Source of the DNA: Acidimicrobiia bacterium
GTDB lineage: Bacteria > Actinomycetota > Acidimicrobiia > Spongiisociales > UBA5794
NCBI GenBank assembly: GCA_024762335.1
Contig: JANTHO010000016.1
Coordinates: 1-46,599, forward strand
Reading direction: 5' to 3'
DNA length: 46,599 nucleotides
Shown here: piece by piece, positions 20,795 to 38,544 of the stretch
Position numbering within the stretch: the first letter of the stretch is position 1
How the letters are laid out: each line of letters starts with the position of its first letter
Position numbers and translations under genes: made by a program
The notes under the pieces: generated by a model
What the model saw: only the letters and a program-made list of their open reading frames with translations
Told to the model about the DNA's origin: nothing
Database searches by the model: none

Positions 20795-21716
<922 letters not shown>

Positions 21717-21717
<1 letters not shown>

Positions 21718-21779
21718 AGCCGAGAGCCAAGAACCGAGAGTCAAGAGCCGAGAGTCAAGAGCCGAGAGTCAAGAGTCAA
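21717..21779. repeat. Heptanucleotide array GAGYCRA, nine units (locus A, left side)
   Basis: Nine consecutive 7-bp units with no gap: GAGCCGA, GAGCCAA, GAACCGA, GAGTCAA, GAGCCGA, GAGTCAA, GAGCCGA, GAGTCAA, GAGTCAA. Variation is confined to three positions. The array starts at the sucD stop codon and runs into the hairpin at 21779-21807. The same heptamer family recurs at 34267-34300 (inverted), 36949-36983 and 38414-38427. Confidence 0.9.
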
Positions 21780-21807
21780 GAGACCCGGGCTTCGCGCCCG
21801 GGTCTCT
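21779..21807. terminator. Bidirectional terminator hairpin between sucD and the regulator gene
   Basis: A 12-bp perfect GC-rich stem (21779-21790 with 21796-21807) with a 5-nt loop, between convergent genes ending at 21717 and 21842. Downstream on the plus strand the sequence is pyrimidine-rich because of the TTTCTAC array. It is flanked on both sides by heptamer arrays. Confidence 0.8.
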
Positions 21808-21839
21808 CTACTTTCTACTTTCTACTTTCTACCGTCTAC
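21805..21839. repeat. Heptanucleotide array TTTCTAC, five units (locus A, right side)
   Basis: Units TCTCTAC, TTTCTAC, TTTCTAC, TTTCTAC, CGTCTAC: three exact copies with one degenerate copy at each end. It abuts the 3' end of the minus-strand regulator gene. The reverse complement GTAGAAA forms arrays at 34197-34231 and 38469-38489. Confidence 0.9.
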
Positions 21840-21841
21840 TC

Positions 21842-23275
21842 CTAGTGGAGCACCGGGAGGCCGGTGATCGCACCGATGATGTCGGCTGCTCGTTCCACCG
21901 CTGCAGCAGGTCGCAACGTGCCGGTGATGACCGCCTCCACCATCTGTTGGAGTTGGATCGAGATCAGTGGATATCCGACAATGTGTGGGCGGTTGACCGC
22001 CGTTGAGAAGAGCCGGGCCGTCTCGAGGACAAACGGCCGTGCCTGTTCGACTAGATCGAGGGAGGACCGTCGTGCCGGGATCATCGGCCGGCCCGCCGTG
22101 CGTGCTGCGAGTTGGGCCGGCGTGGTCAACTGTTCGAGTAGCGCCATGGCGGCAACGGGGTGGCGTGACTGACGGAGTATCACGTAGGCCATGGCACCCG
22201 CGGCCGTAGCAGGAGCACCGTGGGGTCCGCTTGGGAACGGAGCGAATACGAAGCGGTCCCACACAGTCTCGAGGGTGAGGTCCGCCGCATCCGCGATCAC
22301 CTCGGCCTCGTAGCTCCCTCCGATGCCGATGGCTGCCCTACCGGTTCCAAGGTGTCTCGGGGCCGTCAGCCAGCCGTGATTGACGACATCGCCGCTCATC
22401 GTGCCGTCTTCGATGAACTGACGGAGAAGGCGCAGGGTTTCGACGGTCTCTGCGTTGTCGATTCCGACGCCGTCGCCGATGATCCGGACACCGTTGGATC
22501 CGAGCAGGGCAGTGAGGCAGTACGTCGTCGTCTCGGCCGCAGCGAGTCCGCCCGGCATGACGATCGCATGGTTGCCGTTCGGCATCAGGGGTTGGATGGA
22601 TTGAGCGAGGGATCGGAGTTCGCCCCACGTCGAAGGAATGGTCGCACCAACACGATCGATCTGGGCACGGTCGTACCAGACACCGGCGACGTTGATCTCC
22701 TCCGGCACGGCATGCACGTGCCGATCGAAACGCATGCCGTCCACGAACGTTGGATCGAAGTCGGCGCGGTACTCGGATTCGATCCAACGGGGATCGAGAT
22801 CGTCGAGCGCATGAATGACGTGAGCATCGGCGAGCTCGGCAATCCACACCTCGTCGATGAGGGCGATGTCGGGTGCCGTGCCTTCTGCAACCGCCCGCAT
22901 CAAGCATTCAGGAAGTTCCGTGTAGTCGACCACCGTCACATCGGTGTGTGGCGGGGCGGCTCCGGAAATGCGCTCTGCCCGGATTGCGTCGGAGACGACG
23001 ATTCGAAGCGGCGGCCGGTTGCGATCGTCCGATCGCCACTCCGGGTTGACGAATGTGCCTCTCCGACGCATTCTCACGATCACCCCTTCCTCGGCAAGTT
23101 CCGAGAGAGCGCGGTGGACGGGGGTTCGGCTGATCGAGTAGAGGTCGCAGATTTCAGCCTCCGTCGGGAGGCGATCGCCGGGCGCGTACCGTCCCGCTTC
23201 GATTTCGGAGAGGAGCAGCAGTTTGAGCTGGTGATAGAGGGGGACTGCCGAGTCCGCGTCGAGGATGCCGGTCAT
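21842..23275 (-). CDS. GntR DNA-binding domain fused to a solute-binding-protein fold: sugar-responsive regulator
   Basis: 477 aa, no signal peptide. Residues about 10-80 form a GntR winged helix (LYHQLKLLLLSEIEAGRY, GDRLPTEAEICDLY, SRTPVHRALSELAEEGVI). The rest resembles ABC-transporter family 1 solute-binding proteins (APDIALIDEVWIAELAD, GVWYDRAQIDRVGATIPSTW, GRAAIGIGGSYEAE). Most GntR proteins instead carry FCD, UTRA or LacI-like sensors. It lies 25 bases after the phosphorylase gene and divergent from a sugar ABC operon, so it probably senses the same glucoside in the cytoplasm. ATG 23275 follows GGGGGAG. An earlier ATG (23416) is inside the upstream gene. Confidence 0.85.
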   Translation of the reverse strand: MTGILDADSAVPLYHQLKLLLLSEIEAGRYAPGDRLPTEAEICDLYSISRTPVHRALSELAEEGVIVRMRRRGTFVNPEWRSDDRNRPPLRIVVSDAIRAERISGAAPPHTDVTVVDYTELPECLMRAVAEGTAPDIALIDEVWIAELADAHVIHALDDLDPRWIESEYRADFDPTFVDGMRFDRHVHAVPEEINVAGVWYDRAQIDRVGATIPSTWGELRSLAQSIQPLMPNGNHAIVMPGGLAAAETTTYCLTALLGSNGVRIIGDGVGIDNAETVETLRLLRQFIEDGTMSGDVVNHGWLTAPRHLGTGRAAIGIGGSYEAEVIADAADLTLETVWDRFVFAPFPSGPHGAPATAAGAMAYVILRQSRHPVAAMALLEQLTTPAQLAARTAGRPMIPARRSSLDLVEQARPFVLETARLFSTAVNRPHIVGYPLISIQLQQMVEAVITGTLRPAAAVERAADIIGAITGLPVLH

Positions 23276-23300
23276 TCGGGGCTCCCCCGGTCGCTGCCGT

Positions 23301-24998
23301 CTATCGGCTTGAGTCGATGAGCCAAAGCATTCCCCATGGACCGAGAGCGTACCCGTCCCCCGCGGTGCGGAAGCGGTAACCGCGCGGGTTCTCCCCATCC
23401 CGGGCGTCGATCTCAACGGCAGAGTCGGAGACGTTCACAAAGACTCGGCCGCGTTCACCGCTCGGCGCCTGTCGCTCGATGCCGATGACACCGGAAGGCG
23501 TCGGGAGCACCCGCTGGTCGGCGTCGGGGTGAAACGCAGGAGTGGAACGGCGCCAGAGCAGCATCTCTTCGATAGCCCGGAGCGAACGAGATGCACGCGT
23601 GCTCGTGTCGGCCAGCGTGTGGCCCAGGCGATCCGCGCGGAAGCGACCCCGGTTGATCGATCGAGCGGAGCCGGTCTGCTCCATCAACTGGATATCGTTC
23701 GGACTCGCCAACAGCGAGTGGATGTAGACGGCCGGGATGCCGCTTGTGGCAAACATGATGGCGTGGGACGCAAGGTGTCGTGCCAACGCATCGTCTCCCA
23801 TGGTGGATCCGCGGATGAGGTCGTACCAGGTGGCGTTCAGCTCATACGGCGATGATGTTCCGTCGGGGTTGCGCCTGCGGTTCGCCCGGCCACCGTGTCG
23901 TTCTGCTTCGGCGACGAGACGCTCGACGTCGGTCGGGTCGACGAGACCTTCGAGCGGTCGGACACCGACACCGTCATGAGATGCAAGGAAGTTGAGATAG
24001 GTGGTCCCGGGTGGAATGCCGTTTGCCGATTCGAGCCACCGTTCCAGATCCTCTGTCTGGCCCGTGACGAAGGCATGGAGGGTGAGAGGAGGCAGCGTGA
24101 AGCGATAGACCATATCGGCTTCTGGCACGGATCCGTCCCCGAGGTAGCTGATGTTCTCATCGTGGGGGACGTTCGTCTCACTCACCAGAATGACATTCGG
24201 GTAGGTGTCGTCGAGACAGGACCGGAGGAACTGGATGATCGCATGGGTCTGCGGCATGTGGATGGACGGTGTCCCCTCTTCTTTCCACAAGAAGCACGCT
24301 GCGTCGAGGCGGATCGCTGCGGCACCGCGCCGGGCGTACGTAAGGAGGACCGAGAGAACGTACAGGAGGACCTCGGGATTCCGATAGTCCAGGTCGGCCT
24401 GATCGGCGGAGAACGTCGTCCAGACCCATTCATCGCCGCGTACCGTTGTAAACGGTGTGAGCAGCGGATGCTCTCTGGCGCGAACGGTCGCGGACAGGTC
24501 GGCGTCGGGGGATGCCGTGCGAAAGAAGTCGCGGAAGGCCGGGTCGCCGTCCCTCCAACGGGCGAAGCAGTCCGACTGAGCCGAGCAGTGGTTGATGACG
24601 GCGTCGACCATGAGTCGCGCATCACGGCCGATGGCCTCGATGTCCGACCAGCTACCGAACTCGTCGAACACGGCGGAGTAGTCCGTGATGCTGAATCCTT
24701 CGTCTGAACTCGACGGGAAGAACGGCAAGACGTGGATGCCGTTGAATGCGGGCGCTGCGTGCATGGAGAAGAAGTCGTGGAGGGAGGCAAGTGGCGGGCG
24801 ATTGTCGGAGCGGATCTGGTCGGGGTAGGAGATCACCCACGCGTCACGCTCATCCCACCGAGTTCCCCGCATACCCTGTTTTGGCTGGTGCTCGCTGAGA
24901 AGCGCATCGACCCGTGGCATGAGCGCGGCGGAGTGCTCTGCTCCGTAAATTTCGGTGAGGAGTGACGCCGACCGAAAACGCTCTCTTTTAGCACTCAT
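23301..24998 (-). CDS. GH13_18 glycoside phosphorylase (glucosylglycerate/sucrose phosphorylase-like)
   Basis: 565 aa. Alpha-amylase barrel with GIHVLPFFPSSSDEGFSI, then nucleophile Asp232 (IRLDAACFLWKEEGT), acid/base Glu274 (SETNVPHDENISY) and Asp342 (ASHDGVGVRPLEG). These stretches look closest to glucosylglycerate phosphorylase (YcjM of E. coli) and related sucrose phosphorylases, which split an alpha-glucoside with phosphate to give glucose-1-phosphate. E. coli ycjM likewise sits beside a solute-binding protein and two permease genes. The acceptor cannot be fixed by eye. ATG 24998 appears leaderless. Confidence 0.85.
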   Translation of the reverse strand: MSAKRERFRSASLLTEIYGAEHSAALMPRVDALLSEHQPKQGMRGTRWDERDAWVISYPDQIRSDNRPPLASLHDFFSMHAAPAFNGIHVLPFFPSSSDEGFSITDYSAVFDEFGSWSDIEAIGRDARLMVDAVINHCSAQSDCFARWRDGDPAFRDFFRTASPDADLSATVRAREHPLLTPFTTVRGDEWVWTTFSADQADLDYRNPEVLLYVLSVLLTYARRGAAAIRLDAACFLWKEEGTPSIHMPQTHAIIQFLRSCLDDTYPNVILVSETNVPHDENISYLGDGSVPEADMVYRFTLPPLTLHAFVTGQTEDLERWLESANGIPPGTTYLNFLASHDGVGVRPLEGLVDPTDVERLVAEAERHGGRANRRRNPDGTSSPYELNATWYDLIRGSTMGDDALARHLASHAIMFATSGIPAVYIHSLLASPNDIQLMEQTGSARSINRGRFRADRLGHTLADTSTRASRSLRAIEEMLLWRRSTPAFHPDADQRVLPTPSGVIGIERQAPSGERGRVFVNVSDSAVEIDARDGENPRGYRFRTAGDGYALGPWGMLWLIDSSR

Positions 24999-25005
24999 GT
25001 ATAAC

Positions 25006-25034
25006 AAAATAGCCGGAAAAGAAAGCGATGTCGA
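25006..25034 (-). promoter_or_regulatory. Promoter of the phosphorylase-regulator operon (leaderless)
   Basis: On the minus strand TCGACA (25034-25029), 17 bases, TATTTT (25011-25006), then 7 bases to the ATG. The surrounding 60 bases are unusually AT-rich for this genome. The spacing implies a leaderless mRNA. Confidence 0.6.
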
Positions 25035-25045
25035 CCAATTTTCGC

Positions 25046-25075
25046 TTGCACGCGCCGAAGTATTGTTGTTACAGT
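25046..25075 (+). promoter_or_regulatory. Promoter of the sugar ABC operon
   Basis: TTGCAC (25046-25051), an 18-base spacer, TACAGT (25070-25075). The -10 is embedded in the palindrome at 25067-25081, so a repressor bound there would block it. The remaining leader to 25178 contains a small GC hairpin (25139-25153) but no other gene. Confidence 0.55.
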
Positions 25076-25081
25076 GAAACA
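25067..25081. promoter_or_regulatory. Operator-like palindrome TGTTaCAgTGaAACA
   Basis: 15 bp with dyad symmetry (TGTT-CA-TG-AACA matching, centre and one pair mismatched). It overlaps the plus-strand -10 in the divergent promoter region. It is the best candidate site for the GntR/solute-binding fusion regulator encoded by the neighbouring operon. Confidence 0.5.
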
Positions 25082-25178
25082 AATGGGGTGAGGGTCGGTG
25101 TCCGTGCCGGCAGCGCCCCGGCTTGTTGGAAGTCAATTCCCCGCCCGGCGGGGACCGTCAGGACTAGGAGAGAGATCC

Positions 25179-26627
25179 ATGAAACGACTGCGTTTCATGT
25201 TGCTGATGCTGGTAGCCCTCGCGCTCGTCGCGGCGGCGTGCTCAAGCAGCAGCGACGATACAACCACCACAGCAGCCGGTGGTGAGACAACAACTACGGC
25301 CGCTCCCGATACCGGAGGCGGCGAGGCCGTCACGATCAAGTTCTGGAGCACAGAGACCCAACCGGCGCGTCTCCAGAAGACGCAGGCGATCATCGACGGG
25401 TTCACGGCGGCGACGGGCATCAATGTGCAGCTGACTGCCACCGACGAGGATGCTCTGCCACAGCTCATGCTCACGAACGCGGCGTCCGGGACATTGCCGG
25501 ATGTCGTCTTCCACCCGCTCGACTTCACTGTCGGATGGGCAAATGCCGGACTTCTCGACACTGCCGCAGCCGCGGAAGTCGTTGATGAACTCGGTGCAGA
25601 CACGTTCTCACAGGGAGCCCTCTCGATGGTTACCGTCGACGGGAACCCGGCAGCCGTTCCATCGGACGGGTGGGGCCAGTTGCTCATCTACCGGAAGGAC
25701 CTGTTCGACGCGGCCGGACTCGAGAAGCCGGACACGTTCGCGAAGATTCAGGCCGCCGCGGAAGCCCTGAACGATCCGGGCAACAACATGTACGGGATCA
25801 CCGCATCGAACGATCCGAGCGCCGTCTTCACACAGCAGACGTGGGAACACTTCGCTCTGGCCAACGGATGCCAACTGGTCGATGATTCCGGAACCGTCAC
25901 TCTGGATAGCCCCAACTGTGTTGAGGCGATCGACTTCTACACGAACCTGCTGAACAACTACAGTCCGGTGGGTCTCCAGGATGTCGTGTCGACTCGAGCA
26001 ACGTACTTCGCCGGACAGGCCGCGATGATCGTGTGGTCACCGTTCATCCTCGACGAGATGGCAGGTCTGCGTGACGCTGCGCTGCCGACCTGTGAGCAGT
26101 GTGCGTCGGATCCCGCGTACCTCGCGAAGAACAGCGACTTCGTTCCGTCGTTCGCCGGTCCGAGCGGTGCACCGGCCCAGTATGGACAGGTGTCCTACAT
26201 GGGCATCGGCAAGACCGACAAGACAGATGCCGCGAAGGAGTTCGTCAAGTACTGGCTCTCCGAGGGCTACGTCGACTGGCTTTCGGTTGCCCCCGAGGGC
26301 AAATTCCCGATGCGTCAGGGCACGGCGGACAACCCGACCGAGTACATCGATGGCTGGCGGACGCTCGAGACCGGCGTGGATCGCCGGGCACCGTTGAGCG
26401 ACTTCTACAGCGAAGAGGTCATCAACGATCTCATTACCGGATCGAACAACTTCGCCCGGTGGGGTTTCACCCAAGGACAGGGTGAACTCGTCGGGGCCGT
26501 GTACTCGACGTTGATCGTTCCACAGACGCTCGATGAGGTCTTCGCCGGCATGTCGGCGGAAGATGGTGCCGCGGAGATGCAGGCACGAGCCGAAGAAGAG
26601 CAGGCATTGATCGCAGACGAGGGGTAA
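25179..26627 (+). CDS. Sugar ABC transporter solute-binding lipoprotein
   Basis: 482 aa. The signal peptide has lipobox VAAAC, followed by a Ser/Thr-rich linker. The family 1 solute-binding fold starts at VTIKFWSTETQ and includes TLPDVVFHPLDF and GWGQLLIYRKDLFDAAGL. Cys pairs (NGCQ...SPNC; CEQC) may form disulfides. It delivers the sugar to the two downstream permeases. ATG 25179 has AGGAG eight bases upstream. The in-frame upstream GTG (25098) would mask the signal peptide. Confidence 0.93.
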   Translation: MKRLRFMLLMLVALALVAAACSSSSDDTTTTAAGGETTTTAAPDTGGGEAVTIKFWSTETQPARLQKTQAIIDGFTAATGINVQLTATDEDALPQLMLTNAASGTLPDVVFHPLDFTVGWANAGLLDTAAAAEVVDELGADTFSQGALSMVTVDGNPAAVPSDGWGQLLIYRKDLFDAAGLEKPDTFAKIQAAAEALNDPGNNMYGITASNDPSAVFTQQTWEHFALANGCQLVDDSGTVTLDSPNCVEAIDFYTNLLNNYSPVGLQDVVSTRATYFAGQAAMIVWSPFILDEMAGLRDAALPTCEQCASDPAYLAKNSDFVPSFAGPSGAPAQYGQVSYMGIGKTDKTDAAKEFVKYWLSEGYVDWLSVAPEGKFPMRQGTADNPTEYIDGWRTLETGVDRRAPLSDFYSEEVINDLITGSNNFARWGFTQGQGELVGAVYSTLIVPQTLDEVFAGMSAEDGAAEMQARAEEEQALIADEG

Positions 26628-26700
26628 CTGCCGAAGGCAGAGTGGGGCCGGCAACGCGCCGGCCCCACAGCCCACTTCGATCTCCAACCCGGAGGTTCAT

Positions 26701-27675
26701 GTGGCGGCCACGCAGACGCCAGACATGAAAGACAGGCGGCGGCGCAAGACGCCAATGGCGCGAAGAGAGTCGCGGTTCGGTGTCAACCTCATCCTCCCAG
26801 CCGTTCTCGTGGTCGCGCTGCTCGTCGTGTTCCCTCTGCTGTGGAACGTGGCGCTCAGTTTCCAGAAAGCGCGGCTGATCGACATCCAGGACGTGTCGAT
26901 CTGGGGCTTCACGCCGACGCTGAACAACTACAGGACGGTCGTCGGTGCTCATGACTTCTGGCCGGTGCTCAAGACGACGTTCATCTACACGATCGCCGGA
27001 TCGATCCTCTCCATCGGCCTCGGTCTCTGGGCAGCCCTCTCGCTCCAGAAGGCGTTCAAGGGGCGCGCCTTTGTACGAGGCCTCGTGCTCTTCCCGTACG
27101 TGGTCCCGGTGATTGCCGCCGCGTTCGTGTGGCAGGTCATGTTGAACCCCCAGTTCGGAATCGTGAACGAATGGCTCGGGCGTTTCGGGGTTCCCGCCAT
27201 CGACTTCCTGCGAACCCGATCGTATGATCTCAGCGTCTTCGGACTCTTCCATGTGTCGATCCCGCTGGCGTTGACCACCGTCATCGTGTTCGAGGGATGG
27301 CGCTACTTCCCGTTCGCGTTCTTGTTCATCCTCGCCGCCCTCCAGTCCATGCCGGAAGACGTCAACGAAGCGGCGCTCGTCGACGGTGCGACGCTGAGCC
27401 AGAAGTTCCGATACGTGACGCTGCCGGCGCTCGCTCCCGTTCTGTCGGTTCTCTTCCTGTTGCGATTCATCTGGACGTTCAACAAGTTCGATGATGTCTA
27501 TCTGCTGACCGGGGGAGGCTCCGGTACAGAGGTGATCACCGTCAAGATCGTCGACTGGATGCTGGGACGGGGCAACGTGGGAGCTGCGGCCGCCCTTGGG
27601 ATGATTCTTGCGGCAATCCTCCTGGTCGTCGTGGGCCTCTACTTCAAATTCTTCTACAAGGAGGAGACGGCGTGA
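26701..27675 (+). CDS. Sugar ABC transporter permease (MalF/UgpA type)
   Basis: 324 aa, six predicted helices after a basic cytoplasmic N-terminus (residues 1-30). The cytoplasmic EAA loop, EAALVDGATLSQKFRYVTLP, contacts the ATPase. GTG 26701 has GGAGG five bases upstream. It overlaps the second permease by 4 bases. No ATPase gene is present in the operon, so a shared MsmK-type ATPase elsewhere is likely. Confidence 0.94.
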   Translation: MAATQTPDMKDRRRRKTPMARRESRFGVNLILPAVLVVALLVVFPLLWNVALSFQKARLIDIQDVSIWGFTPTLNNYRTVVGAHDFWPVLKTTFIYTIAGSILSIGLGLWAALSLQKAFKGRAFVRGLVLFPYVVPVIAAAFVWQVMLNPQFGIVNEWLGRFGVPAIDFLRTRSYDLSVFGLFHVSIPLALTTVIVFEGWRYFPFAFLFILAALQSMPEDVNEAALVDGATLSQKFRYVTLPALAPVLSVLFLLRFIWTFNKFDDVYLLTGGGSGTEVITVKIVDWMLGRGNVGAAAALGMILAAILLVVVGLYFKFFYKEETA

Positions 27676-28538
27676 CCCGCGCAGAATTCGAGGAACGCTT
27701 CTTCGGGACGCTGAAGTGGATGAGCATCGTGTTCTTCGCCGTCATCGCCCTCTTCCCCCTCCTCTACATGCTGGCGCTCTCCTTCAAGCCGATCCAGGAT
27801 CTGTTGCTGGATCCCGGGAAATGGTGGCCCACGCTCGAACAGATCACGGGATTTGAGACGTACCGGGCCGTCCTCCGCCCCGTCGATCAGGGAGGATTCG
27901 GCTTCGTCACCTTCATCCGGAACAGTTCGATCGTCGCTGTGTCGACGGTGATCCTGACCCTCGCCGTCGGCATCCTGGCCGCCTATTCGGTGGCTCGTGT
28001 GAACTTCTTCGGTCGGCAGACGGTCAGCATCGGGATGATCCTCGTGTATCTGTTCCCCGTAGTGATCGTGGCCATCCCCCTGTTCGTCATGTTCTCTCGC
28101 ATGGGGATCCGCGACTCGCTCTATGGCCTCGTCATCGTCTACCTCGCCTCCACACTTCCGGTGACGATGTACATGCTGAGAGGCTACTTCCAGTCCATTC
28201 CCGTCTCGCTGGAAGAGGCTGCGATGGTGGACGGTCTCTCGCGTTTTGGCGTCATTCGGAAGATCACTTTCCCTCTGGCCGCGCCGGCGATCGCCGCGGT
28301 CGCCCTCTATGTCTTCATGATCGCCTGGAACGAATTCCTCTACGCACTGCTCTTCGTTCTGGAGAAGCGTGAGCTTTGGACCCTGTCTCTCGGCGTGAAC
28401 CAGCTCAACACGCAGGAAGTGCCCAAGACCATGCTGATGGCCGGGTCGGTGATCATCTCGCTGCCCATCATTGTGCTGTTCTTCGCTGCCGAGCGGTTCC
28501 TGACTGAGGGCCTCACCGCCGGCGGTGTCAAGGGGTAG
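27672..28538 (+). CDS. Sugar ABC transporter permease (MalG/UgpE type)
   Basis: 288 aa, six helices, EAA motif EEAAMVDGLSRFGVIRKITFP. The start GTG 27672 overlaps the previous stop (GTGA), indicating translational coupling. It pairs with the preceding permease to form the membrane channel for the phosphorylase substrate. Confidence 0.94.
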   Translation: MTRAEFEERFFGTLKWMSIVFFAVIALFPLLYMLALSFKPIQDLLLDPGKWWPTLEQITGFETYRAVLRPVDQGGFGFVTFIRNSSIVAVSTVILTLAVGILAAYSVARVNFFGRQTVSIGMILVYLFPVVIVAIPLFVMFSRMGIRDSLYGLVIVYLASTLPVTMYMLRGYFQSIPVSLEEAAMVDGLSRFGVIRKITFPLAAPAIAAVALYVFMIAWNEFLYALLFVLEKRELWTLSLGVNQLNTQEVPKTMLMAGSVIISLPIIVLFFAAERFLTEGLTAGGVKG

Positions 28539-28541
28539 TCG

Positions 28542-29753: not shown

Positions 29754-29792
29754 CCGGCTCGGGACGGTCAGCCTGCCGAGTCGGGCTACCGT
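29747..29792 (+). terminator. Imperfect hairpin at the end of the sugar operon
   Basis: Arms around 29747-29755 and 29784-29792 pair over 9 bp, with an imperfect extension inward. It overlaps the glycosyltransferase stop and the putative -10 (TACCGT, 29787-29792) of the next gene. It may combine termination with the racemase promoter. Confidence 0.4.
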
Positions 29793-29799
29793 CTGGACC

Positions 29800-30489
29800 A
29801 TGAGAACCATCGGAATCCTTGGCGGCATGTCGTGGGAGTCGTCGATCGAATACGAGCGGATCATCAACGAGGCCGTTCGCGAGAGACTCGGCGGTGTGCA
29901 CTCGGCCGACCTGCTGATCCGTTCCTACGACTTCGACCAGATCGAGACGTTGCAGGCGGCGGGGAACTGGGAGGCGGCCGGCCAGCTCCTTGCCGACGAC
30001 GCCGCCCGCCTCGAGGAGGCCGGGGCCGATGTGATCGTGCTCGCTACGAACACGATGCACAAGGTCGCCCGACAGATCGAGGACGTCACGAGGATCCCGT
30101 TCATCCACATCGCAGACGCCACGGCGGATGCTGTGAAAGCGGAAGGCATCCAGGCGGTCGCCCTCCTCGGAACCCGATACACGATGGAGCAGGATTTCTA
30201 CCGGGGACGGCTGACCGCCCACGGTCTCGAAGTCCTGGTACCCGGAGCGGGGGACCGCACGTTCGTCCACGATGTGATCTTCAACGAGCTCGTCCAGGGA
30301 CGGATCGTGGAGGAGTCCAAACAGCGGTATCTGGAGATCATCGCCCGTCTTCAGGAGCGAGGCGCCGAAGGGGTGATCGCCGGCTGCACCGAGATCGAAC
30401 TCCTCGTGACACCGGACGACGTGGATCTTCCGTACTTCCCGACGGCCCGGATCCACGCGATGGCCGCCGTCGACTTCGCACTGCAGTAG
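29800..30489 (+). CDS. Aspartate/glutamate racemase family protein
   Basis: 229 aa. IGILGGMSWESSIEYERIINEAV at the N-terminus, first catalytic-site region LATNTMHKVA and second GCTEIELLV. Asp/Glu racemases use two Cys. Here the first is replaced by Thr (ATNTMH) while the second Cys is kept, as in the YgeA-type broad-spectrum branch and some inactive or epimerase relatives. ATG 29800 follows TACCGT by 7 bases and is probably leaderless. It is adjacent to purH but separated by about 85 bases. Confidence 0.85.
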   Translation: MRTIGILGGMSWESSIEYERIINEAVRERLGGVHSADLLIRSYDFDQIETLQAAGNWEAAGQLLADDAARLEEAGADVIVLATNTMHKVARQIEDVTRIPFIHIADATADAVKAEGIQAVALLGTRYTMEQDFYRGRLTAHGLEVLVPGAGDRTFVHDVIFNELVQGRIVEESKQRYLEIIARLQERGAEGVIAGCTEIELLVTPDDVDLPYFPTARIHAMAAVDFALQ

Positions 30490-30574
30490 GAAGCGCCGGG
30501 GCCCTGTGAGCCTATCGATCGTGGACGGTCGCTCGGGTTCTGCGACCCGGCGTCGCCTCTACCATGCCGGAGCG

Positions 30575-32092: not shown

Positions 32093-32943
32093 GCGCACTC
32101 ATCCTCTCCGGTAAGGAGGTCGCAGCGGTCGTTCGCTCCGAGGTCGCCGAACGGGTCGCCGCACTTGGCGAACGGGGGCAAACGGTCGGTCTTGCCACCG
32201 TGCTGGTCGGCGACGATCCCGCGTCGAAGATCTACGTCGCAAGCAAGCACCGGGCGGCCGTAGCGGCCGGAATGCAGTCCTACGATCATCACCTCCCGGA
32301 GAACGCTTCCCAGGACGAGGTGGAGGCGCTCGTGTCCGAACTCAACGCGGATGAGCGTGTGGACGGCATGATCGTCCAACTCCCTTTGCCGGAAGACCTC
32401 GACGGGGAACGGGCGGTTGAACTGGTCGATCCGCACAAGGATGCCGATGGGCTCCATCCGTTCAATCTGGGGCGGCTTCTCCTCTCCCGTCCCGGGCCGT
32501 TACCCGCAACGCCGGCCGGGATCATGAGGATCCTCGAGTACTACGGGATCGAGACGGCGGGGAAGCGAGCGGTGATCGCCGGCAGGTCGTTCCTGGTCGG
32601 TCGGCCCATGTCGATCATGCTCGGGGCGAAGGGTGTCGACGCAACCGTCACCCAGGCGCACTCCCGCACACCTGACCTGGCCGGGGTGTGTCGCGAAGCC
32701 GATATCCTGGTGACCGCCGTCGGTCGACCGAGAATGTTCGACGAACGTTTCGTGAAGCCGGGAGCGACCGTCGTCGACGTCGGAATCAGCCGGACGGACG
32801 ATGGTCTCGTGGGCGATGTCGATTTCGAAGCGGTCGTCGACATCGCCGGGGCGATTACGCCGGTGCCCGGCGGGGTCGGGCCGATGACCATCGCCACGCT
32901 GCTGTCGAACACGGTCGCGTTGGCGGAGGCAAAGAACAACTGA
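32089..32943 (+). CDS. folD: Methylenetetrahydrofolate dehydrogenase / cyclohydrolase
   Basis: 284 aa. [18 protein letters not shown] (catalytic Lys region), [21 protein letters not shown] and nucleotide-binding [14 protein letters not shown] and [13 protein letters not shown]. It produces 10-formyl-THF for PurH. The start is TTG 32089 overlapping the purH stop (TTGA), with AGGAGG 11 bases upstream. There is no in-frame ATG near the N-terminus. Confidence 0.95.
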
Positions 32944-32983
32944 AACGAGGCGGATGTACCGCCGACGGAAAGGTGCAACACAC

Positions 32984-34186
32984 ATGGGTTCAACGATCAC
33001 GATGACCGAGAGCGGTCTCAACGTCCCGAACGACCCGATCATCCCGTTCATCGAGGGTGATGGGATCGGGCCGGACATCTGGGCGGCCGCGGTTCGCGTC
33101 TTCGACGCGGCAGTGGAAAAGGCGTACGGCGGTGAACGCAAGATCCAGTGGGAAGAAGTGCTCGCCGGACAGAAAGCGTTCGACGCGACGGGCGAGTGGT
33201 TGCCCGAGGCGACCATCGAAGGGTTCCGGAAGTACCTCGTCGGGATCAAGGGTCCGCTCACCACGCCCGTCGGCGGCGGTATCCGCAGCCTCAACGTCGC
33301 CCTCCGTCAGATCCTCGACCTGTATGTCTGTCTGCGGCCGGTCCGCTGGTATGCGGGCGTGCCGTCTCCCGTGAAGCACCCGGAACTGATCGATATGGTC
33401 ATCTTCCGCGAGAACACCGAAGACGTGTACGCGGGCAAGGAGCTCGAAGCGGGCACTGAGGACGTCGCGAAGCTGATCGCCTTCCTCAAGGAGCAGTACG
33501 GCTGGGATATCCGGTCCGACAGCGGCATCGGCATCAAGCCGATCTCGGAGACCGGGACGAAGCGCCTCGTCCGTGCCGCCGTCGAGTACGCCGTTGCCAA
33601 CAACCGGAAATCGGTCACGCTCGTTCACAAGGGCAACATCATGAAGTTCACCGAGGGTGCGTTCCGTACCTGGGGCTACGAGGTCGTTCGCGACGAATTC
33701 CCCGACGTTGCCGTCGGCTGGGATGACTGTGGCGGCGACCCCGGCGACAAGATCCTGGTGAAGGATGTCATCGCCGACGCGTTCCTCCAGCAGATCCTCA
33801 CGCGGCCTGCCGAGTACGACGTGATCGCCACGATGAACCTCAACGGCGACTTCATCTCCGATGCGCTCGCTGCTCAGGTTGGCGGGATCGGAATCGCCCC
33901 CGGCGGGAATGTGAACTACGAGAACGGCTACGCCGTGTTCGAAGCCACACACGGAACGGCGCCGAAGTACACGGGCATGGACAAAGTGAATCCCGGTTCG
34001 GAGATCCTTTCGGGGGAGCTGATGTTCCGCTACATGGGTTGGGACGAGGCAGCCGACCTCATCGTCAAGGGTATGGAGGCGGCGATCGCCGACAAGATCG
34101 TCACCTACGACTTCGCCAGACTCATGGAGGGCGCGACCGAGGTCAAGACGAGCGAGTTCGCCACCGCCATGATCGAACGGATGTGA
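32984..34186 (+). CDS. icd: NADP-dependent isocitrate dehydrogenase (dimeric, E. coli type)
   Basis: 400 aa. N-terminal [16 protein letters not shown], phosphorylation-loop-like [28 protein letters not shown], and [16 protein letters not shown] with the Lys-Tyr pair that marks NADP specificity in E. coli Icd. Many actinobacteria use the unrelated monomeric enzyme instead. ATG 32984 has GAAAGGTG upstream. An ATG ten codons earlier is possible but without a good site. Confidence 0.95.
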
Positions 34187-34196
34187 ACGTCTTTCG

Positions 34197-34231
34197 GTAA
34201 GAAGTAGAAGGTAGAAAGTAGCAAGTAGAAA
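34197..34231. repeat. Heptanucleotide array GTAGAAA, five units (locus B, left side)
   Basis: GTAAGAA, GTAGAAG, GTAGAAA, GTAGCAA, GTAGAAA, beginning 11 bases after the icd stop. GTAGAAA is the reverse complement of TTTCTAC, so this is the locus A right-hand array in inverted orientation. Confidence 0.88.
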
Positions 34232-34266
34232 GAGGGCGGTCCCGGCGATGCCGGGGCCGCCCTCTT
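34230..34266 (+). terminator. icd terminator hairpin flanked by heptamer arrays
   Basis: A 17-bp stem (34230-34246 with 34250-34266, one G-T pair) and a 3-nt loop, among the strongest hairpins in the window. It lies exactly between the GTAGAAA array and the GGTTCTT array. Confidence 0.85.
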
Positions 34267-34300
34267 GGTTCTTGGTTCTTGGTTCTTGGTTCTTGGTTCT
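34267..34300. repeat. Heptanucleotide array GGTTCTT, 4.9 units (locus B, right side)
   Basis: Four exact GGTTCTT units plus GGTTCT. Its reverse complement read in phase is GAACCAA, a member of the GARYCRA family of locus A. The whole locus B is therefore locus A turned around. Confidence 0.88.
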
Positions 34301-34363
34301 ATCTCCGTGCGACGGCAGGCTTGAGTCTCTAGGATCGGACCCGGTACGCCACGGGAGGACAGC

Positions 34364-35797
34364 ATGGCGAAGGTTGTGGTGATCGGGTCCGGTTTCGCAG
34401 GACATACCGCTGCGTTGTATCTGGGAGACGCGATCGGCAAGGCACATGAGGTCACGGTCATCAACAAGTATGACTACTTCGGATACGTTCCCGCTTGGGT
34501 CTGGGTCGGAGTCGGCTCGATGGCACCGGAGAAGACCATCTTCGATCTCGAACCGGTCTATGACAAGATGCACGTCGGGTTCGTGCACGGCGCAGCGACC
34601 GAGGTTCACCCCGACGACAATTTCGTGATGGTGGATCCGGCGGGAGGTGGGGAGCCGATTCGCGTCGACTACGACTTCCTCGTCGTCGCCACGGGCCCTC
34701 GCCTCGACTTCGAGTCGACCCCCGGTCTGGGGCCGCACGGCGGTCACACCTATTCCATCTGCACGCTCGACCACGCGGTGCAGGCCCGCGATGCGTACCA
34801 CGAGGCGATCGGACGCATGGAAGCGGGTGAGCATCAGCGCCTCGTGATCGGTACTGGTCATCCGATGGCGACGTGCCAGGGTGCCGCGTTCGAGTACATC
34901 ACGAACATCCACAAGGACCTGGTGCGCCGGGGGGTCCGCGACAAGGCGGATCTCCTGTGGCTATCGAACGAACCTGCCGTCGGCGACTTCGGCGTGCGCG
35001 GTGTTCACGTGAAGCAGGGCGACCGGATCATGGGCAGCGACGAGTTCCTCCTCGCCCTCTTCGACGATTACGGCATCGATTCGGCTGTGCAGCGGGGTGT
35101 CCAGAGTATTGACGAGAGTGTCATTCACTGGGAGAACTACGAAGGGGAGTACGGGGAGACACCATATGACTTCGCGATGCTCGTGCCCCGTTTTCTCGGC
35201 GTCCAGATGAAGTTCATCGGGGAAGACGGTACGGATATCTCGGAGAAGGTCACGAACCCCGGCGGACTCATCCTCGTCGATGCGCAGTATGGGCTGCCGT
35301 ACGAGAAGCTGAAGGACAATCCGGACGCATGGCCCGGCCGCTACCAGAATCCGACGTATCGGAACCTCTTCGCCGCCGGGATAGCGTTCGCACCACCCGG
35401 CCCGATCTCGGTGCCGCACACGACACCGAACGGTACGAGCATCACAGCGGTTGCGCCGCGCACCGGGATGATCTCCGGCATCATCGGGCGCATCGTCGCG
35501 AAGAACCTGATCGACATGGTTGAGCACGGGCGGATGCCACACGAGGAGCGAATGTCGCACATGGCTGCAGCGTGTATCGCTTCGATGGGAGACTCGCTGT
35601 GGGATGGCTCCGCGGCAACGATCATCATGTACCCGGTCGTCCCGGATCCGAACCGGTATCCGAACGAGTTCGGGCGGGACCTGTTCGTCTCCGAGATGGA
35701 GATGGGTCTCGCTGGGGCGTGGATGAAGCGCATGATTCAGACGACGTTCATGTACAAGCTGAAGGGGAAGCCAGGATGGAAGATCATTCCGGAGTGA
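34364..35797 (+). CDS. Sulfide:quinone oxidoreductase-like flavoprotein
   Basis: 477 aa. FAD site [18 protein letters not shown] at the N-terminus. Three Cys sit where sulfide:quinone oxidoreductases carry their catalytic set: Cys133 (SICTLDHA), Cys171 ([11 protein letters not shown]) and Cys404 (AACIASMG). The C-terminal third has amphipathic helices suitable for monotopic membrane binding. It would oxidise sulfide and feed electrons to quinone, upstream of the bc complex. Other two-dinucleotide-binding-domain flavoproteins (NDH-2) lack the Cys set. ATG 34364 has GGGAGG upstream. Confidence 0.75.
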
Positions 35798-35919
35798 CGG
35801 CAGCGCAGTTCACCGAGCGTGACAAGAAACGCATGGCGAGCAAGCCGCGCCAACTCGTGCGGTTCGTCGCACTCAACTTGAAGATCCTCAAGGCCGTCGA
35901 CCGCTCCAAGCGCTCATAG
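35776..35919 (+). CDS. Small basic protein overlapping the end of the SQR-like gene
   Basis: 47 aa from ATG 35776 (AAGGGG nine bases upstream) or 41 aa from GTG 35794, which overlaps the preceding stop as GTGA. Family not recognised. Residues: a charged first half ([14 protein letters not shown]), then a short amphipathic/hydrophobic helix ([15 protein letters not shown]) and a basic end. Third codon positions are almost all G or C, matching real genes here. Translational coupling suggests a partner or membrane-docking peptide for the flavoprotein. Confidence 0.55.
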
Positions 35920-36010
35920 AGTCCGACGGCCCGGGCGTCGGCGCGCTCAGGATTCGGGGTGCGCCGGGGCAACTACGATTGGGGTGTTCCGCCGACAAGA
36001 AGGAGTCGCG

Positions 36011-36946
36011 ATGAGCAAGGTCACCGTTGTAGGAGCCGGGAAGTACGGCTCGACGACCGTCCAGCGTCTCGCTGAGGCCGACATGGTCGATGAAGTCGTC
36101 ATGGTCGACATCGTCGAAGGTCTGCCGCAGGGTCTCGCCCTCGACATGAACGAGTCCCGTCCCGTCCTCGGGTATCGCACCCTCGTCACGGGCACGAACG
36201 ACTATGCAGACACGGCGGACAGCGATGTTGTCGTCATCACCGCCGGCCTTCCCCGCAAGCCCGGCATGAGCCGCATGGATCTCCTCGAGGTCAACGCGAA
36301 GATCGTCAAGGGCGTGGCTCAAGAGATCGCTAAGTATTCGCCGGATTGCGTGATCATCGTCGTCACGAACCCCCTGGATCAGATGACGACCCTCGTCGCG
36401 GAGGTCACGGGCTTCCCGAAGGAGCGGGTGATGGGCCAGGCCGGGATGCTCGACTCGGCCCGCCTCACGCACTTCATCTCGGAGAAATCCGGTGTCGACG
36501 TGCTGAAGATCAAGGCCGTCACGCTCGGCAGCCACGGGCCAACGATGGTGCCGGTTCCGTCACTGTGTGACGTGGACGGCAAGTCGCTCGACGAGGTGTT
36601 CGATGCCGAGACGATCGAGGAGCTTCTCGACCGGACGCGGGGTGGCGGTGCCGAGATCGTGGCGCTGTTGAAGACCGGATCGGCCTACTACGCGCCGTCC
36701 GCAGCCGCCGCAGCGATGGTCGAGGCGGTTATCAAGGACACGGGTGCGGAGATGCCGGTGTGTGCTTGGATGACCGGCCAGTACGGCATCGACGATGTGT
36801 ACCTGGGTGTTCTCGCCAAGCTGGGTGCCGGCGGCGTGCAGGAAGTCCACGAGGTAGCGCTCACGGACACCGAGGTCGCCGGTCTGCGCGAAGCCGCTGT
36901 GGCCGTCAAAGCCAAGGTCGCCGATCTCGCGGAGATCGACTACTAG
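36011..36946 (+). CDS. mdh: Malate dehydrogenase (LDH-like family)
   Basis: 311 aa. NAD site VTVVGAGKYGSTTVQRLAE. Substrate loop AGLPRKPGMSRMDLL, with Arg residues that select a dicarboxylic acid and mark malate rather than lactate dehydrogenase. Catalytic His is in GSHGPTMVP. It completes the citrate-cycle set in this window. ATG 36011 has AAGGAG, and a TACGAT -10 candidate lies about 45 bases upstream. The upstream in-frame GTG adds nine residues before the Rossmann strand and is rejected. Confidence 0.95.
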   Translation: MSKVTVVGAGKYGSTTVQRLAEADMVDEVVMVDIVEGLPQGLALDMNESRPVLGYRTLVTGTNDYADTADSDVVVITAGLPRKPGMSRMDLLEVNAKIVKGVAQEIAKYSPDCVIIVVTNPLDQMTTLVAEVTGFPKERVMGQAGMLDSARLTHFISEKSGVDVLKIKAVTLGSHGPTMVPVPSLCDVDGKSLDEVFDAETIEELLDRTRGGGAEIVALLKTGSAYYAPSAAAAAMVEAVIKDTGAEMPVCAWMTGQYGIDDVYLGVLAKLGAGGVQEVHEVALTDTEVAGLREAAVAVKAKVADLAEIDY

Positions 36947-36948
36947 AA

Positions 36949-36983
36949 GAGCCAAGAGGCAAGAAGCAAGAGCCAAGAGCCAA
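36949..36983. repeat. Heptanucleotide array GAGCCAA, five units (locus C)
   Basis: GAGCCAA, GAGGCAA, GAAGCAA, GAGCCAA, GAGCCAA, starting two bases after the mdh stop, then a degenerate unit leading into the hairpin at 36992-37020. On the far side of the hairpin two GTTCTGG units (37025-37038) look like a degenerate inverted version of the same family. No TTTCTAC array is present here. Confidence 0.85.
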
Positions 36984-36991
36984 GACAAGAT

Positions 36992-37020
36992 GTGGGGCCC
37001 GGACTTCGTCCGGGCCCCAC
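36992..37020. terminator. Bidirectional terminator between mdh and the convergent membrane-protein gene
   Basis: A 13-bp perfect stem (36992-37004 with 37008-37020) with a TTC loop, located between two convergent genes ending at 36946 and 37046. Confidence 0.85.
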
Positions 37021-37045
37021 GCTCGTTCTGGGTTCTGGGGACGGG

Positions 37046-37981
37046 TCAGTCGTTTGAGGCCGAGTATGCGGCTTCCGCTGCGGCACGTTCGCGTTCGTAC
37101 TGTTCGTAGGCTTCGCGAATCTCCTGAGCGCTCTTCTCTGCAGCCGCTCGCTGTTCCCGCGCCCGGTTCCGGGCGATGATCACGTCGCGGCGGGTCGCCC
37201 AGAGAGCTACCGCCCCGACAAACAGGATCAGGATGCCGGTCAGGGCAAGGAACCACCCGTATCCGACCTGGACGTCCTTGTACTGGGCTGCGACGCCGAT
37301 CGCCTCGATCTGGGCCTCTTGCAGGGAAGTCCTGAGAGACGCACCGGAGAGGGAGATGACCGCTCCACCGCCCACGGAGAGGTAGATGAGGAGGCGGTTC
37401 GCTGCCAGACCGTGCGGTGCGGTCGCAACCGCAAACAACCCGAGAAGGCCGACGCCGATGAACGCTGCCACCCCGGGGTTGAGGTTCACCGTCCGGTCGC
37501 CGAGTGTCACGAGCACGACCGCGAATACGAGGATGAGGACACCGAGGTTGATCAACATGCGAATGGCGAACCGATCCAGGGACGGCACGCGGGGGAGTAC
37601 GACGCTCTTGAACGTGCGGTAGATCATCATCCACAGGGCCAGGCTCAAGACTGCGGAGACAACGAAGCTGAATGTGACCGAGACGGTGTCCGGTCCGAAG
37701 ACAAATCCGAGGACGGTGGCCACGACGGTCGTCACTCCGACGACGGTCGCCGAATAGGAAAGTTCCACGGCGCGCTTGGGGACGACTGCCAGGGCGAGGA
37801 TGAGGAGTGCTGCGCCGACGGCGAAGTAGGTCCACCCTTGATCCATCTCGTAGCCACGCAGGGACCAGGGCTCGACGAGGAACCCGTAGGCGGGGTTCGT
37901 TCTCGCATACTCCCAGACGAGCGATGCCATCACGATCACCGGCCCGAGCGTGACCGCGATCTTGCTCCAGTTGTGTTTCAC
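37046..37981 (-). CDS. Polytopic membrane protein with C-terminal coiled coil
   Basis: 311 aa, family not recognised. About eight hydrophobic helices span residues 8-260. The C-terminal 45 residues are charged and Ala/Glu/Arg-rich (REQRAAAEKSAQEIREAYEQY), predicting a cytoplasmic coiled coil. The soluble loop near 215-235 contains SLRTSLQEAQIEAIG. Start GTG 37981 has AAGGAGAG six bases upstream. It is divergent from hupB and convergent with mdh. Confidence 0.8.
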   Translation of the reverse strand: MKHNWSKIAVTLGPVIVMASLVWEYARTNPAYGFLVEPWSLRGYEMDQGWTYFAVGAALLILALAVVPKRAVELSYSATVVGVTTVVATVLGFVFGPDTVSVTFSFVVSAVLSLALWMMIYRTFKSVVLPRVPSLDRFAIRMLINLGVLILVFAVVLVTLGDRTVNLNPGVAAFIGVGLLGLFAVATAPHGLAANRLLIYLSVGGGAVISLSGASLRTSLQEAQIEAIGVAAQYKDVQVGYGWFLALTGILILFVGAVALWATRRDVIIARNRAREQRAAAEKSAQEIREAYEQYERERAAAEAAYSASND

Positions 37982-38051
37982 GATGCTCTCCTTGTCGCCG
38001 ACACTCTACCCTGCATCGCGTTCCCTCGGAGTCCTTGCCCTGTAAGAGTTC

Positions 38052-38080
38052 TTGCCCACGCACGGGGGCACCGTTAGGGT
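38052..38080 (+). promoter_or_regulatory. hupB promoter
   Basis: TTGCCC (38052-38057), a 17-base spacer, TAGGGT (38075-38080), about 50 bases before the start. The -35 hexamer equals that proposed for trpS. Confidence 0.6.
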
Positions 38081-38129
38081 TACACCGCTGTGATTTACGT
38101 CAGCACCAACGACCACCAAGGAGGTCTCT

Positions 38130-38408
38130 GTGAACAAGGGTGAGCTCATCGAAGCTGTTGCTCGCAATACCGGCGAGTCGAAGGCGACCGCCGCCAAGGT
38201 CATCGACGAAACGCTCGACGTCATCGTGTCCGGCGTCGTGACCCAGGGCAAGGTACAGATCACCGGATTTGGGACGTTCGAAGCGCGCGACCGCAAGGCC
38301 CGCACCGCCCGCAACCCCCAGACCGGCGAAGAAGTCAAGGTCGCGGCGACCCGCGTCCCGGCATTCAAGGCGGGCAAGGCGTTCAAGGATCAGGTCAAGC
38401 CCGGCTGA
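38130..38408 (+). CDS. hupB: HU-family DNA-binding protein
   Basis: 92 aa, standard short HU without the Lys-rich tail of mycobacterial HupB. MNKGELIEAVARNTGESKATA, GFGTFEARDRKARTARNP (arm that inserts in the minor groove) and VPAFKAGKAFKD are all present. It is an abundant nucleoid architectural protein. GTG 38130 has AAGGAGG seven bases upstream. Confidence 0.97.
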   Translation: MNKGELIEAVARNTGESKATAAKVIDETLDVIVSGVVTQGKVQITGFGTFEARDRKARTARNPQTGEEVKVAATRVPAFKAGKAFKDQVKPG

Positions 38409-38413
38409 TCCAA

Positions 38414-38427
38414 GAACCAAAGCCAAT
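38414..38427. repeat. Degenerate GAACCAA heptamers (locus D, left side)
   Basis: One exact GAACCAA and one diverged unit (AGCCAAT), five bases after the hupB stop and before the hairpin at 38430-38465. It is the shortest array of this family and is recognised mainly by its position. Confidence 0.55.
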
Positions 38428-38429
38428 CA

Positions 38430-38465
38430 ATGAGCGAGGGGCCCCGGATGGGGCCCCTCTCTCAT
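38430..38465. terminator. hupB terminator hairpin
   Basis: A 10-bp perfect inner stem (38436-38445 with 38450-38459, 4-nt loop), extended by 5 bp (38430-38434 with 38461-38465) after a one-base mismatch. Convergent genes end at 38408 and 38548. Confidence 0.8.
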
Positions 38466-38468
38466 TGT

Positions 38469-38544
38469 GTAGAAAGTAGAAAGTAGAAAGTCCGAGACGA
38501 ACGGTCTGTCGGTGTCTTTCTACTCTCTTCTTTCTACTTTCTAC
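38469..38544. repeat. Inverted heptamer arrays (GTAGAAA)3 and (TTTCTAC)4 (locus D, right side)
   Basis: Three exact GTAGAAA units (38469-38489), 27 intervening bases with a weak AGAC/GTCT hairpin, then TTTCTAC, TCTCTTC, TTTCTAC, TTTCTAC (38517-38544). The two arrays are reverse complements and can pair into a long stem. The last unit ends three bases before the stop of the minus-strand SCP2 gene. Confidence 0.88.

What the first reader, a model, noticed from the sequence alone, without database searches (positions are those of the whole stretch)
21717..38544. Modular heptamer-hairpin-heptamer elements after four housekeeping genes
Four intergenic regions (after sucD 21717-21839, icd 34197-34300, mdh 36949-37038, hupB 38414-38544) share one plan. 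Each is a strong GC hairpin flanked by tandem 7-bp arrays drawn from two families, GARYCRA and TTTCTAC. Arrays stay in perfect 7-base phase with up to nine units, begin within 0-11 bases of stop codons and directly abut the hairpins. Three of four lie between convergent genes. Cyanobacterial STRR heptamers are a known analogue, but coupling of two heptamer families to terminator hairpins is something I do not recognise. It may be a propagating repeat system or a transcription-end architecture of this lineage.
Basis: seen in the sequence. Interest (0 to 1): 0.8.

Follow-up and report, generated by a model that had tools for sequence, protein, structure and literature searches.

The report
Palindromic seven-base repeats at gene ends
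Short seven-letter DNA repeats collect just after genes in this bacterium and its relatives, often as mirror-image pairs and sometimes supplying the gene's stop signal; the repeated word changes between species while the neighbouring terminator hairpin mostly stays, so they look like fast-evolving passengers of a known but unexplained repeat class.

Summary
The arrays are real: period 7 is the only repeat period that stands out in the window and in most relatives sampled. Three loci are largely as described; at hupB the supposed GARYCRA array is a conserved non-repetitive leader. The two-family, hairpin-coupled plan is not a fixed system. Same-word arrays close together on opposite strands are purine form first, pyrimidine form second in 21 of 21 printed pairs, so many elements are heptamer palindromes. 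At the window's four gene ends in congeners, the GC hairpin is kept in 9 of 10 cases seen, while the words differ or are absent. Stop-bearing words (GTAGAAA) overrun gene ends and supply the TAG stop: 38 of 50 array-adjacent ends use TAG, against 226 of 873 others. Polarity and stop coupling recur for TTTCTAC arrays in other phyla. Array-rich genomes searched show no reverse transcriptase or Y1 transposase. Best reading: heptanucleotide microsatellites grown and inverted by DNA slippage and template switching, tolerated between stop and terminator. Closest precedent: inverted GGGAATC heptamers of Xanthomonas (PMC4692102). New variant of a known kind.

The parts
21716..21782 (+). GARYCRA-type heptamer array (about nine units) starting inside the TAG stop of sucD
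   Evidence: stop codon TAG at 21715-21717
21780..21806 (+). GC terminator hairpin of sucD
   Evidence: -24.0 kcal/mol, z -6.8; related CCCGGGC stem at the G001 orthologue
21804..21839 (-). TTTCTAC array (GTAGAAA in the sense of the convergent gene ending at 21842)
34204..34232 (+). GTAGAAA array 17 nt after the icd stop
   Evidence: (looser threshold)
34230..34266 (+). GC hairpin after icd; GGGCGG..CCGCCC stem kept in G001, G002 and G006 and as a variant in G004
   Evidence: -37.3 kcal/mol
34263..34300 (+). TTGGTTC array, five units, abutting the icd hairpin; not complementary to the left array
36947..36985 (+). GAGCCAA-type array directly after the mdh stop
36991..37021 (+). GC hairpin after mdh, related stem in G001 and G006
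38409..38427 (+). conserved single-copy hupB leader (CCAAGAACC..GCCAA), not a heptamer array
   Evidence: present in G001 and G006 with the same non-periodic spacing
38428..38467 (+). GC hairpin after hupB, related hairpin in G001 and G006
38469..38491 (+). GTAGAAA array, left arm of a second, heptamer-built palindrome
38516..38544 (-). TTTCTAC units, right arm, ending a few bases from the stop of the convergent SCP2-domain gene (38548)

Best explanation
These are heptanucleotide microsatellites that settle between stop codons and terminators. Their order comes from DNA replication and recombination, not from a dedicated transcription-end device. Proposed steps: (1) short words expand by 7-nt slippage (inferred; the 7-nt preference is observed); (2) an array on one side of a hairpin is copied inverted onto the other side by template switching, giving purine-arm, loop, pyrimidine-arm palindromes (inferred; the polarity is shown broadly, exact mirroring of a rare variant at one locus); (3) words and some spacers spread between loci by recombination, so words are shared within a genome and swapped at orthologous sites (the result is shown, the route inferred); (4) selection filters position: arrays survive where no coding is lost, and words carrying a stop codon can overrun a gene end because a 7-nt period puts a stop in all three frames within three units (supported by the TAG bias and in-phase stops). 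The GC hairpin is the older terminator; the arrays are passengers that at most add a multi-frame stop and a pyrimidine-rich tail.
For: Period 7: 26 arrays against at most 3 of any other period 4-13 in 538 kb of own sequence, partly chosen by matches; in samples chosen without reference to arrays, G004 21 against 1, G006 4 against 1, G013 7 against 1, other order members 15 against 5; another family, mostly chosen loci, 60 against 2; around loci of other phyla with the selected array masked, 33 against 25 for all other periods together. Polarity: 21 of 21 printed opposite-strand pairs within 150 bp are R then Y (counted; listings of G004, G043 and G384 are truncated). In tandem gaps proximal arrays are 9 R, 0 Y and distal 9 Y, 2 R. 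Inverted self-match of 14 or more in 31 of 112 clusters against 5 for a reversed-only control; by my reading 24 of the 31 have heptamer arms, 7 are GC hairpins. The 15-mer around the variant unit GTATCAA occurs exactly twice in the draft genome, mirrored at C31. Words replaced while hairpins are kept. Stop filter: TAG 38 of 50 against 226 of 873 (p 1e-12), in-phase stop in 20 of 50, overlap at most 20 nt, every overrunning word stop-bearing; with the stop-less GARYCAA word in family f8 there is no TAG bias, 5 of 23 against 23 of 113. RNA pairing not maintained: G.U 10 against A.C 12 in 12 tandem palindromes. Y1 transposase in 0 of 17 genomes; RT in 1 of 17, G038, not one of the array-rich ones.
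Against: Arm copying is not general: GTAGAAA arms match within a locus no better than between loci (0.760 against 0.734, sd 0.019; 464 of 5000 permutations reach it), so inverted copying rests on polarity plus one clear locus. In 260 kb of own sequence outside the window period 7 is no commoner than 6 or 9 (2 each). Polarity has exceptions: near stops GTAGAAA is 28 sense, 2 antisense, and GARYCAA in f8 10 sense, 2 antisense. The latter word has no stop, so the stop filter does not explain its bias. Slippage alone does not explain why the same words recur in unrelated families and phyla. Arrays recur at the same orthologous ends with different words, which could also mean a function. Some sites keep their word (L038:3160 in three species). 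No strain-level data were available.
Confidence: 0.6

Rival explanations
1. A functional transcription-end architecture: the purine array, hairpin and pyrimidine array together act as a bidirectional terminator or 3'-end stabiliser, the pyrimidine tail standing in for a U-tract or a Rho loading site.
For: Arrays sit at gene ends and often abut terminators (19 of the 28 arrays that share a gap with a strong hairpin are within 10 nt of it); the same orthologous ends recur; the four window hairpins are not followed by a run of four or more T (sequence shows). In Xanthomonas, transcripts start or stop more often in G4-forming heptamer repeats than in control repeats (PMC4692102).
Against: Hairpins persist without arrays (icd in G001 and G004, mdh in G001). 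In sucD and icd the two arms are different words and cannot pair. Transition mismatches do not favour G.U over A.C (10 against 12). In 260 kb of own sequence outside the window 1 of 140 gaps of 25 bp or more carries an array, a further one lying at a contig end.
Confidence: 0.2
2. A mobile or templated repeat system: an enzyme such as a REP-associated Y1 transposase or a reverse transcriptase writes or moves the arrays.
For: Same words at many loci and in distant taxa; shared spacer AGAAAGACACAATC at three G004 loci; GTAG, present in one word family, is the foot sequence of REP elements (recalled, not tested).
Against: PF01797 in 0 of 17 genomes and PF00078 in 1 of 17, with positive controls ringing; hairpins differ between loci and are mostly kept in place between orthologues; several words lack GTAG. 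Drafts are incomplete, but G043 is 98% complete.
Confidence: 0.1
3. Binding arrays for a sequence-specific RNA- or DNA-binding protein at gene ends.
For: Strongly biased orientation relative to stops; degenerate but constrained words (TTGRYTC with all four variants of the same two positions in two families).
Against: Words are replaced wholesale between congeners at the same site, which a recognised site would not tolerate unless the protein co-changed.
Confidence: 0.07

Closest known systems
GGGAATC / GGGGA(C/T)T heptameric repeats of Xanthomonas and Nostoc (PMC4692102; three sections and passages read)
   Same: Heptamers, intergenic, close to or overlapping stop codons in sense orientation, rare inside genes and between divergent genes; 70 and 75 convergently oriented (inverted) pairs in two Xanthomonas genomes; mostly between the same genes in two species, with length and sequence variation; generally not found with mobile elements.
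   Different: One G-rich word type able to form G-quadruplexes. Here the words have no G-tract, several words coexist, whole words are swapped at orthologous sites, and GTAG words supply the stop codon.
TAACTGA direct repeats of Beggiatoaceae (PMC4679880; abstract, two sections and passages read)
   Same: Dispersed heptamer arrays, patchy across phyla; that paper already notes that a stop-bearing word closes all frames and can overlap an ORF end by at most 18 nt.
   Different: Mostly just upstream of start codons, direct not inverted (one inverted case); one word studied.
Cyanobacterial STRR heptamers
   Same: Tandem heptamers dispersed between genes.
   Different: Known to me by recall and by mention in papers listed or read here only; I know of no terminator or palindrome link.
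Heptanucleotide long simple sequence repeats (Mrazek 2007, seen only as cited in PMC4679880 and PMC4692102)
   Same: Heptanucleotides reported as the commonest long unit in most genomes; slippage with a 7-nt polymerase contact proposed.
   Different: A survey class; the passages I saw do not mention palindromes, stop-codon takeover or orthologue turnover.
REP/BIME palindromes with RAYT transposases
   Same: Dispersed intergenic palindromes; GTAG foot (recalled).
   Different: No Y1 transposase in the 17 genomes searched; hairpin sequence not shared between the four window loci.

Membership tests
Heptanucleotide long simple sequence repeats / STRR | head-to-tail 7-nt units beyond chance | tested here: met
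Heptanucleotide long simple sequence repeats / STRR | dispersed at many intergenic loci | tested here: met
   about 24 loci; 3 of 53 arrays inside genes in sequence sampled without reference to arrays
Heptanucleotide long simple sequence repeats / STRR | unit number varies between strains | tested here: inconclusive
   only species-level genomes: number and word differ; no strains held
Xanthomonas-type inverted heptamers (PMC4692102) | convergently oriented pairs | tested here: met
   21 of 21 printed opposite-strand pairs within 150 bp
Xanthomonas-type inverted heptamers (PMC4692102) | G-rich word with G-tracts able to form quadruplexes | tested here: not met
   words GTAGAAA and GARYCAA have no G-tract (sequence)
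Intrinsic terminator | stable GC hairpin just after the gene | tested here: met
Intrinsic terminator | U-tract directly after the stem | tested here: not met
   no run of four T within 10 nt after the four stems (sequence)
REP/BIME with RAYT | Y1 (REP-associated) transposase in the genome | tested here: not met
   PF01797: 0 of 17 genomes; control rings in 5 of 14 known genomes
REP/BIME with RAYT | same palindrome core at many loci | tested here: not met
   the four window hairpins differ from one another but are mostly kept between orthologues
Known structured RNA family | match to an Rfam model | tested here: not met
   0 matches over the window at gathering scores

The most novel reading that the evidence does not exclude
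Bacteria of many phyla share a 7-nt-quantised DNA process, independent of transposases and reverse transcriptases, that writes mirror-image heptamer arrays at transcript ends. It spreads a small vocabulary of words within a genome, rewrites them between species at conserved hot spots, and lets stop-bearing words take over as the genes' own stop codons.
Probability: 0.3. Interest if true: 0.8.

Novelty: new variant of a known kind. Interest (0 to 1): 0.5.

Why it matters
Why seven bases is the favoured long repeat unit in bacteria has stayed open since a 2007 survey (as cited in the two papers read). Congeneric genomes in which orthologous terminators keep their hairpin but carry different heptamer words give a natural experiment to separate slippage, inverted copying and word transfer. 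The stop-codon takeover shows a simple rule, a period of 1 mod 3 plus one stop per unit, by which a repeat can invade gene ends safely.

Tried and rejected
RAYT/REP mobilisation (GTAG foot, recalled): no Y1 transposase. Reverse-transcriptase templating: RT only in G038. Lack of mismatch repair as the special cause: MutS_V gives partial hits over the cut-off in G000 and G001 and none in the 12 other order members searched, but the two Gemmatimonadota genomes with TTTCTAC loci have full hits, so it does not separate. RNA-stem selection: G.U against A.C 10 to 12 in tandem loci. General mirrored copying of arms: not significant, 464 of 5000. Convergent gaps: 3.57 against 0.79 (tandem) and 0.32 (divergent) arrays per kb in the genus sample was inflated by choosing contigs with TTTCTAC. 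My first 'unselected' counts were themselves flawed: they left out L041 and two G004 contigs with hits and included three own stretches picked after the hits were known. Recounted without the window and with those mended: 8 of 62 convergent, 16 of 283 tandem, 6 of 107 divergent gaps (the pooled line printed wrongly dropped G004), convergent against the rest p 0.049; in own sequence outside the window 0 of 21 convergent gaps. So the convergent preference is weak. TTTCTAC x3 as a phylum-wide signal: 1 of 296 genomes, the window's own; that draw held no other member of the genus. The backwards control is uninformative, since it matches the same arrays in another register; that has hits in 7 of 138 genomes, the most (10) in G027. 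Viral vehicle: 9 stretches of viral contigs carry TTTCTAC x3; 120 or more carry TTGRYTC x3; not read further. Rfam: nothing. Word clustering for G004 chained into one large cluster and says little; G000 word counts there come mostly from loci chosen by those words.
Full report
WHAT IS THERE. In the window, tandem 7-bp arrays occur at 21716-21782, 21804-21839, 34263-34300, 36947-36985 and 38469-38491, and at a looser threshold at 34204-34232. At the stricter threshold no other period between 4 and 15 gives an array except 14; at the looser one there is also one of period 15. Each of the four places has a strong GC hairpin. The genes are succinyl-CoA ligase alpha, NADP isocitrate dehydrogenase, malate dehydrogenase and an HU-family protein. 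The hupB 'GARYCRA' part is not an array: the same non-periodic leader stands in G001 and G006.

GENOME-WIDE. The window is C16 of a 2.42 Mb draft. Two strict patterns give about 24 places by my grouping: 9 with TTTCTAC x2 and 16 of the TTGRYTC type x2, one place shared. The genus includes G004, whose coordinates match a record titled Acidimicrobiia bacterium CSMAG_619. In 538 kb of own sequence, partly chosen for matches, period 7 gives 26 arrays and every other period 4-13 at most 3. The window is the dense spot: 6 arrays in 46.6 kb. In 260 kb of own sequence, taken before the TTGRYTC-type hits were seen and from contigs without TTTCTAC hits, there are 3 at the looser threshold, one weak and inside a gene; there period 7 is no commoner than 6 or 9 (2 each at the stricter threshold).

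RELATIVES AND WORDS. Congeners and other family members carry further heptamers: GGTAGTC, GGTATCC, CAGCGGA, CTGCAAG, AGGTGAC, AGCTACC, CCGATGA. In samples taken without reference to arrays, period 7 leads: G004 21 against at most 1, G006 4 against 1, G013 7 against 1, other order members 15 against 5. TTTCTAC x2 is in 5 of the 7 genus genomes searched (own included) and in one other genome, G030, of 60 searched in all. TTTCTAC x3 is in 1 of 296 phylum genomes, the window's own; that draw held no other member of the genus. TTGRYTC x3 is in 9 of 138 order genomes, abundant in G000 (32) and in both genomes of a genus in another family, G043 (112) and G384 (75); the backwards control hits 7 genomes. 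That family repeats the picture in 148 kb mostly around chosen loci: 60 period-7 arrays against at most 2 of another period, and arrays in 13 of 17 convergent, 19 of 57 tandem and 3 of 17 divergent gaps.

ORTHOLOGUE TURNOVER. For the window's four gene ends I saw 10 orthologous ends in congeners (G003 icd is cut by its contig end and left out). By eye the GC hairpin is kept in 9, the exception being sucD of G003, where an 8-bp TAGAGCAG palindrome stands instead; 3 of 10 have no array. sucD: GAGCCRA left in G000, GTAGAAA in G001, whose right arm keeps the TTTCTAC type. icd: GTAGAAA and TTGGTTC in G000, TCCGTAC and TTGTCTG in G002, GGTAGTC in G006, none in G001 or G004. mdh: GAGCCAA in G000, AGCTACC in G006, none in G001. 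After hupB: GTAGAAA, GAGCTGC and CCTGTCA in G000, G001 and G006. Other sites keep the word: L038:3160 is GTAGAAA in G000, G001 and G004.

PALINDROME RULE. Where arrays of one word lie within 150 bp on opposite strands, the purine form is 5' and the pyrimidine form 3' in 21 of 21 printed pairs (counted; listings of G004, G043 and G384 are truncated). In tandem gene pairs, where no convergent gene could explain it, arrays near the stop are 9 purine, 0 pyrimidine, and farther ones 9 pyrimidine, 2 purine. Within 40 bp of a stop the exact GTAGAAA word is sense in 28 and antisense in 2. Of 112 array clusters, 31 have an inverted self-match of 14 or more against 5 for a reversed-only control; by my reading 24 of these have heptamer arms. 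The best mirrored case is C31:10679-10773: the 15-mer around its odd unit GTATCAA occurs exactly twice in the draft genome, at matching places in the two arms. In general the arms of a locus are not more alike than arms of different loci, and sucD and icd of the window have unrelated words on the two sides.

STOP CODONS. Of 50 gene ends in the genus sample with an array starting at or near the stop, 38 use TAG, against 226 of 873 other ends (Fisher p 1e-12). In 20 of 50 the TAG is itself a unit of the array, and arrays begin up to 20 nt inside the reading frame. All arrays that overrun the stop in that list have stop-bearing words; words without a stop start after it. G001 sucD has four more residues than G000, three of them wholly array-coded. 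In family f8, where the dominant word has no stop, TAG is not enriched: 5 of 23 against 23 of 113. The genus sample was partly chosen by the GTAGAAA word, which feeds this bias.

OTHER PHYLA. Of 67 with enough flank (13 dropped), a GTAGAAA-like 11-mer with up to two mismatches lies within 150 bp on the 5' side in 16 and on the 3' side in 1 (shuffled means 4.4 and 0.55). Of 57 (23 dropped), a stop of an open frame of 100 codons or more lies inside or within 40 nt before the GTAGAAA-sense array in 27, against 5 on the other side; 14 of the 27 are inside the array, which the other strand cannot offer because it has no stops. One locus in each test, L092, is from the window's genus; without it the counts are 15 to 1 and 26 to 5. 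Several loci share a genome, so they are not all independent. Outside the selected array these loci show 33 period-7 arrays against 25 of all other periods 4-13.

MECHANISM. Shown: period 7, position, polarity with few exceptions, hairpin mostly kept while words change, stop takeover. Inferred: slippage, template switching, transfer between loci. RNA-level selection on the stems is not supported (G.U 10, A.C 12). Transposase and RT routes are not supported. A spacer shared by three loci in G004 suggests recombination as the route by which words spread. The convergent preference, strong in the chosen samples, is weak in the others: 8 of 62 convergent against 22 of 390 other gaps, p 0.049.

PRIOR WORK. 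PMC4692102 (three sections and passages read) describes in Xanthomonas heptamers near or over stop codons in sense orientation and 70 and 75 convergent inverted pairs. PMC4679880 (abstract, two sections and passages) notes that stop-bearing heptamers close all frames. So the kind is known. In eight searches of the held library the listings showed no paper on heptamer-word replacement at orthologous gene ends or on such arrays in Acidimicrobiia; most subscription journals are not held.

Noticed in passing
window 21842-23275 (-): The convergent neighbour of sucD joins a GntR DNA-binding domain to an extracellular solute-binding domain in one 477-aa frame.
   Followed up: no
L210 (G004 C13) around 209-293: A 137-bp imperfect inverted repeat joins two convergent gene ends and their CAGCGGA arrays; paralogous genes or a contig-end artefact.
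   Followed up: no
contig ends, e.g. G000 C8, C10, C15; G001 C18, C94: Several arrays lie at contig ends, so draft assemblies probably break there and undercount them.
   Followed up: no
L066-L145, bases just before the TTTCTAC array: GTC precedes the array in 9 of 73 distant loci (four same-genus loci and contig-edge cases dropped); the same GAAAGAC junction recurs at six G004 loci.
   Followed up: partly
G003 sucD end (L185 about 2585): An 8-bp rather than 7-bp palindrome of TAGAGCAG units at a site that carries heptamers in sister species.
   Followed up: no
   Followed up: no
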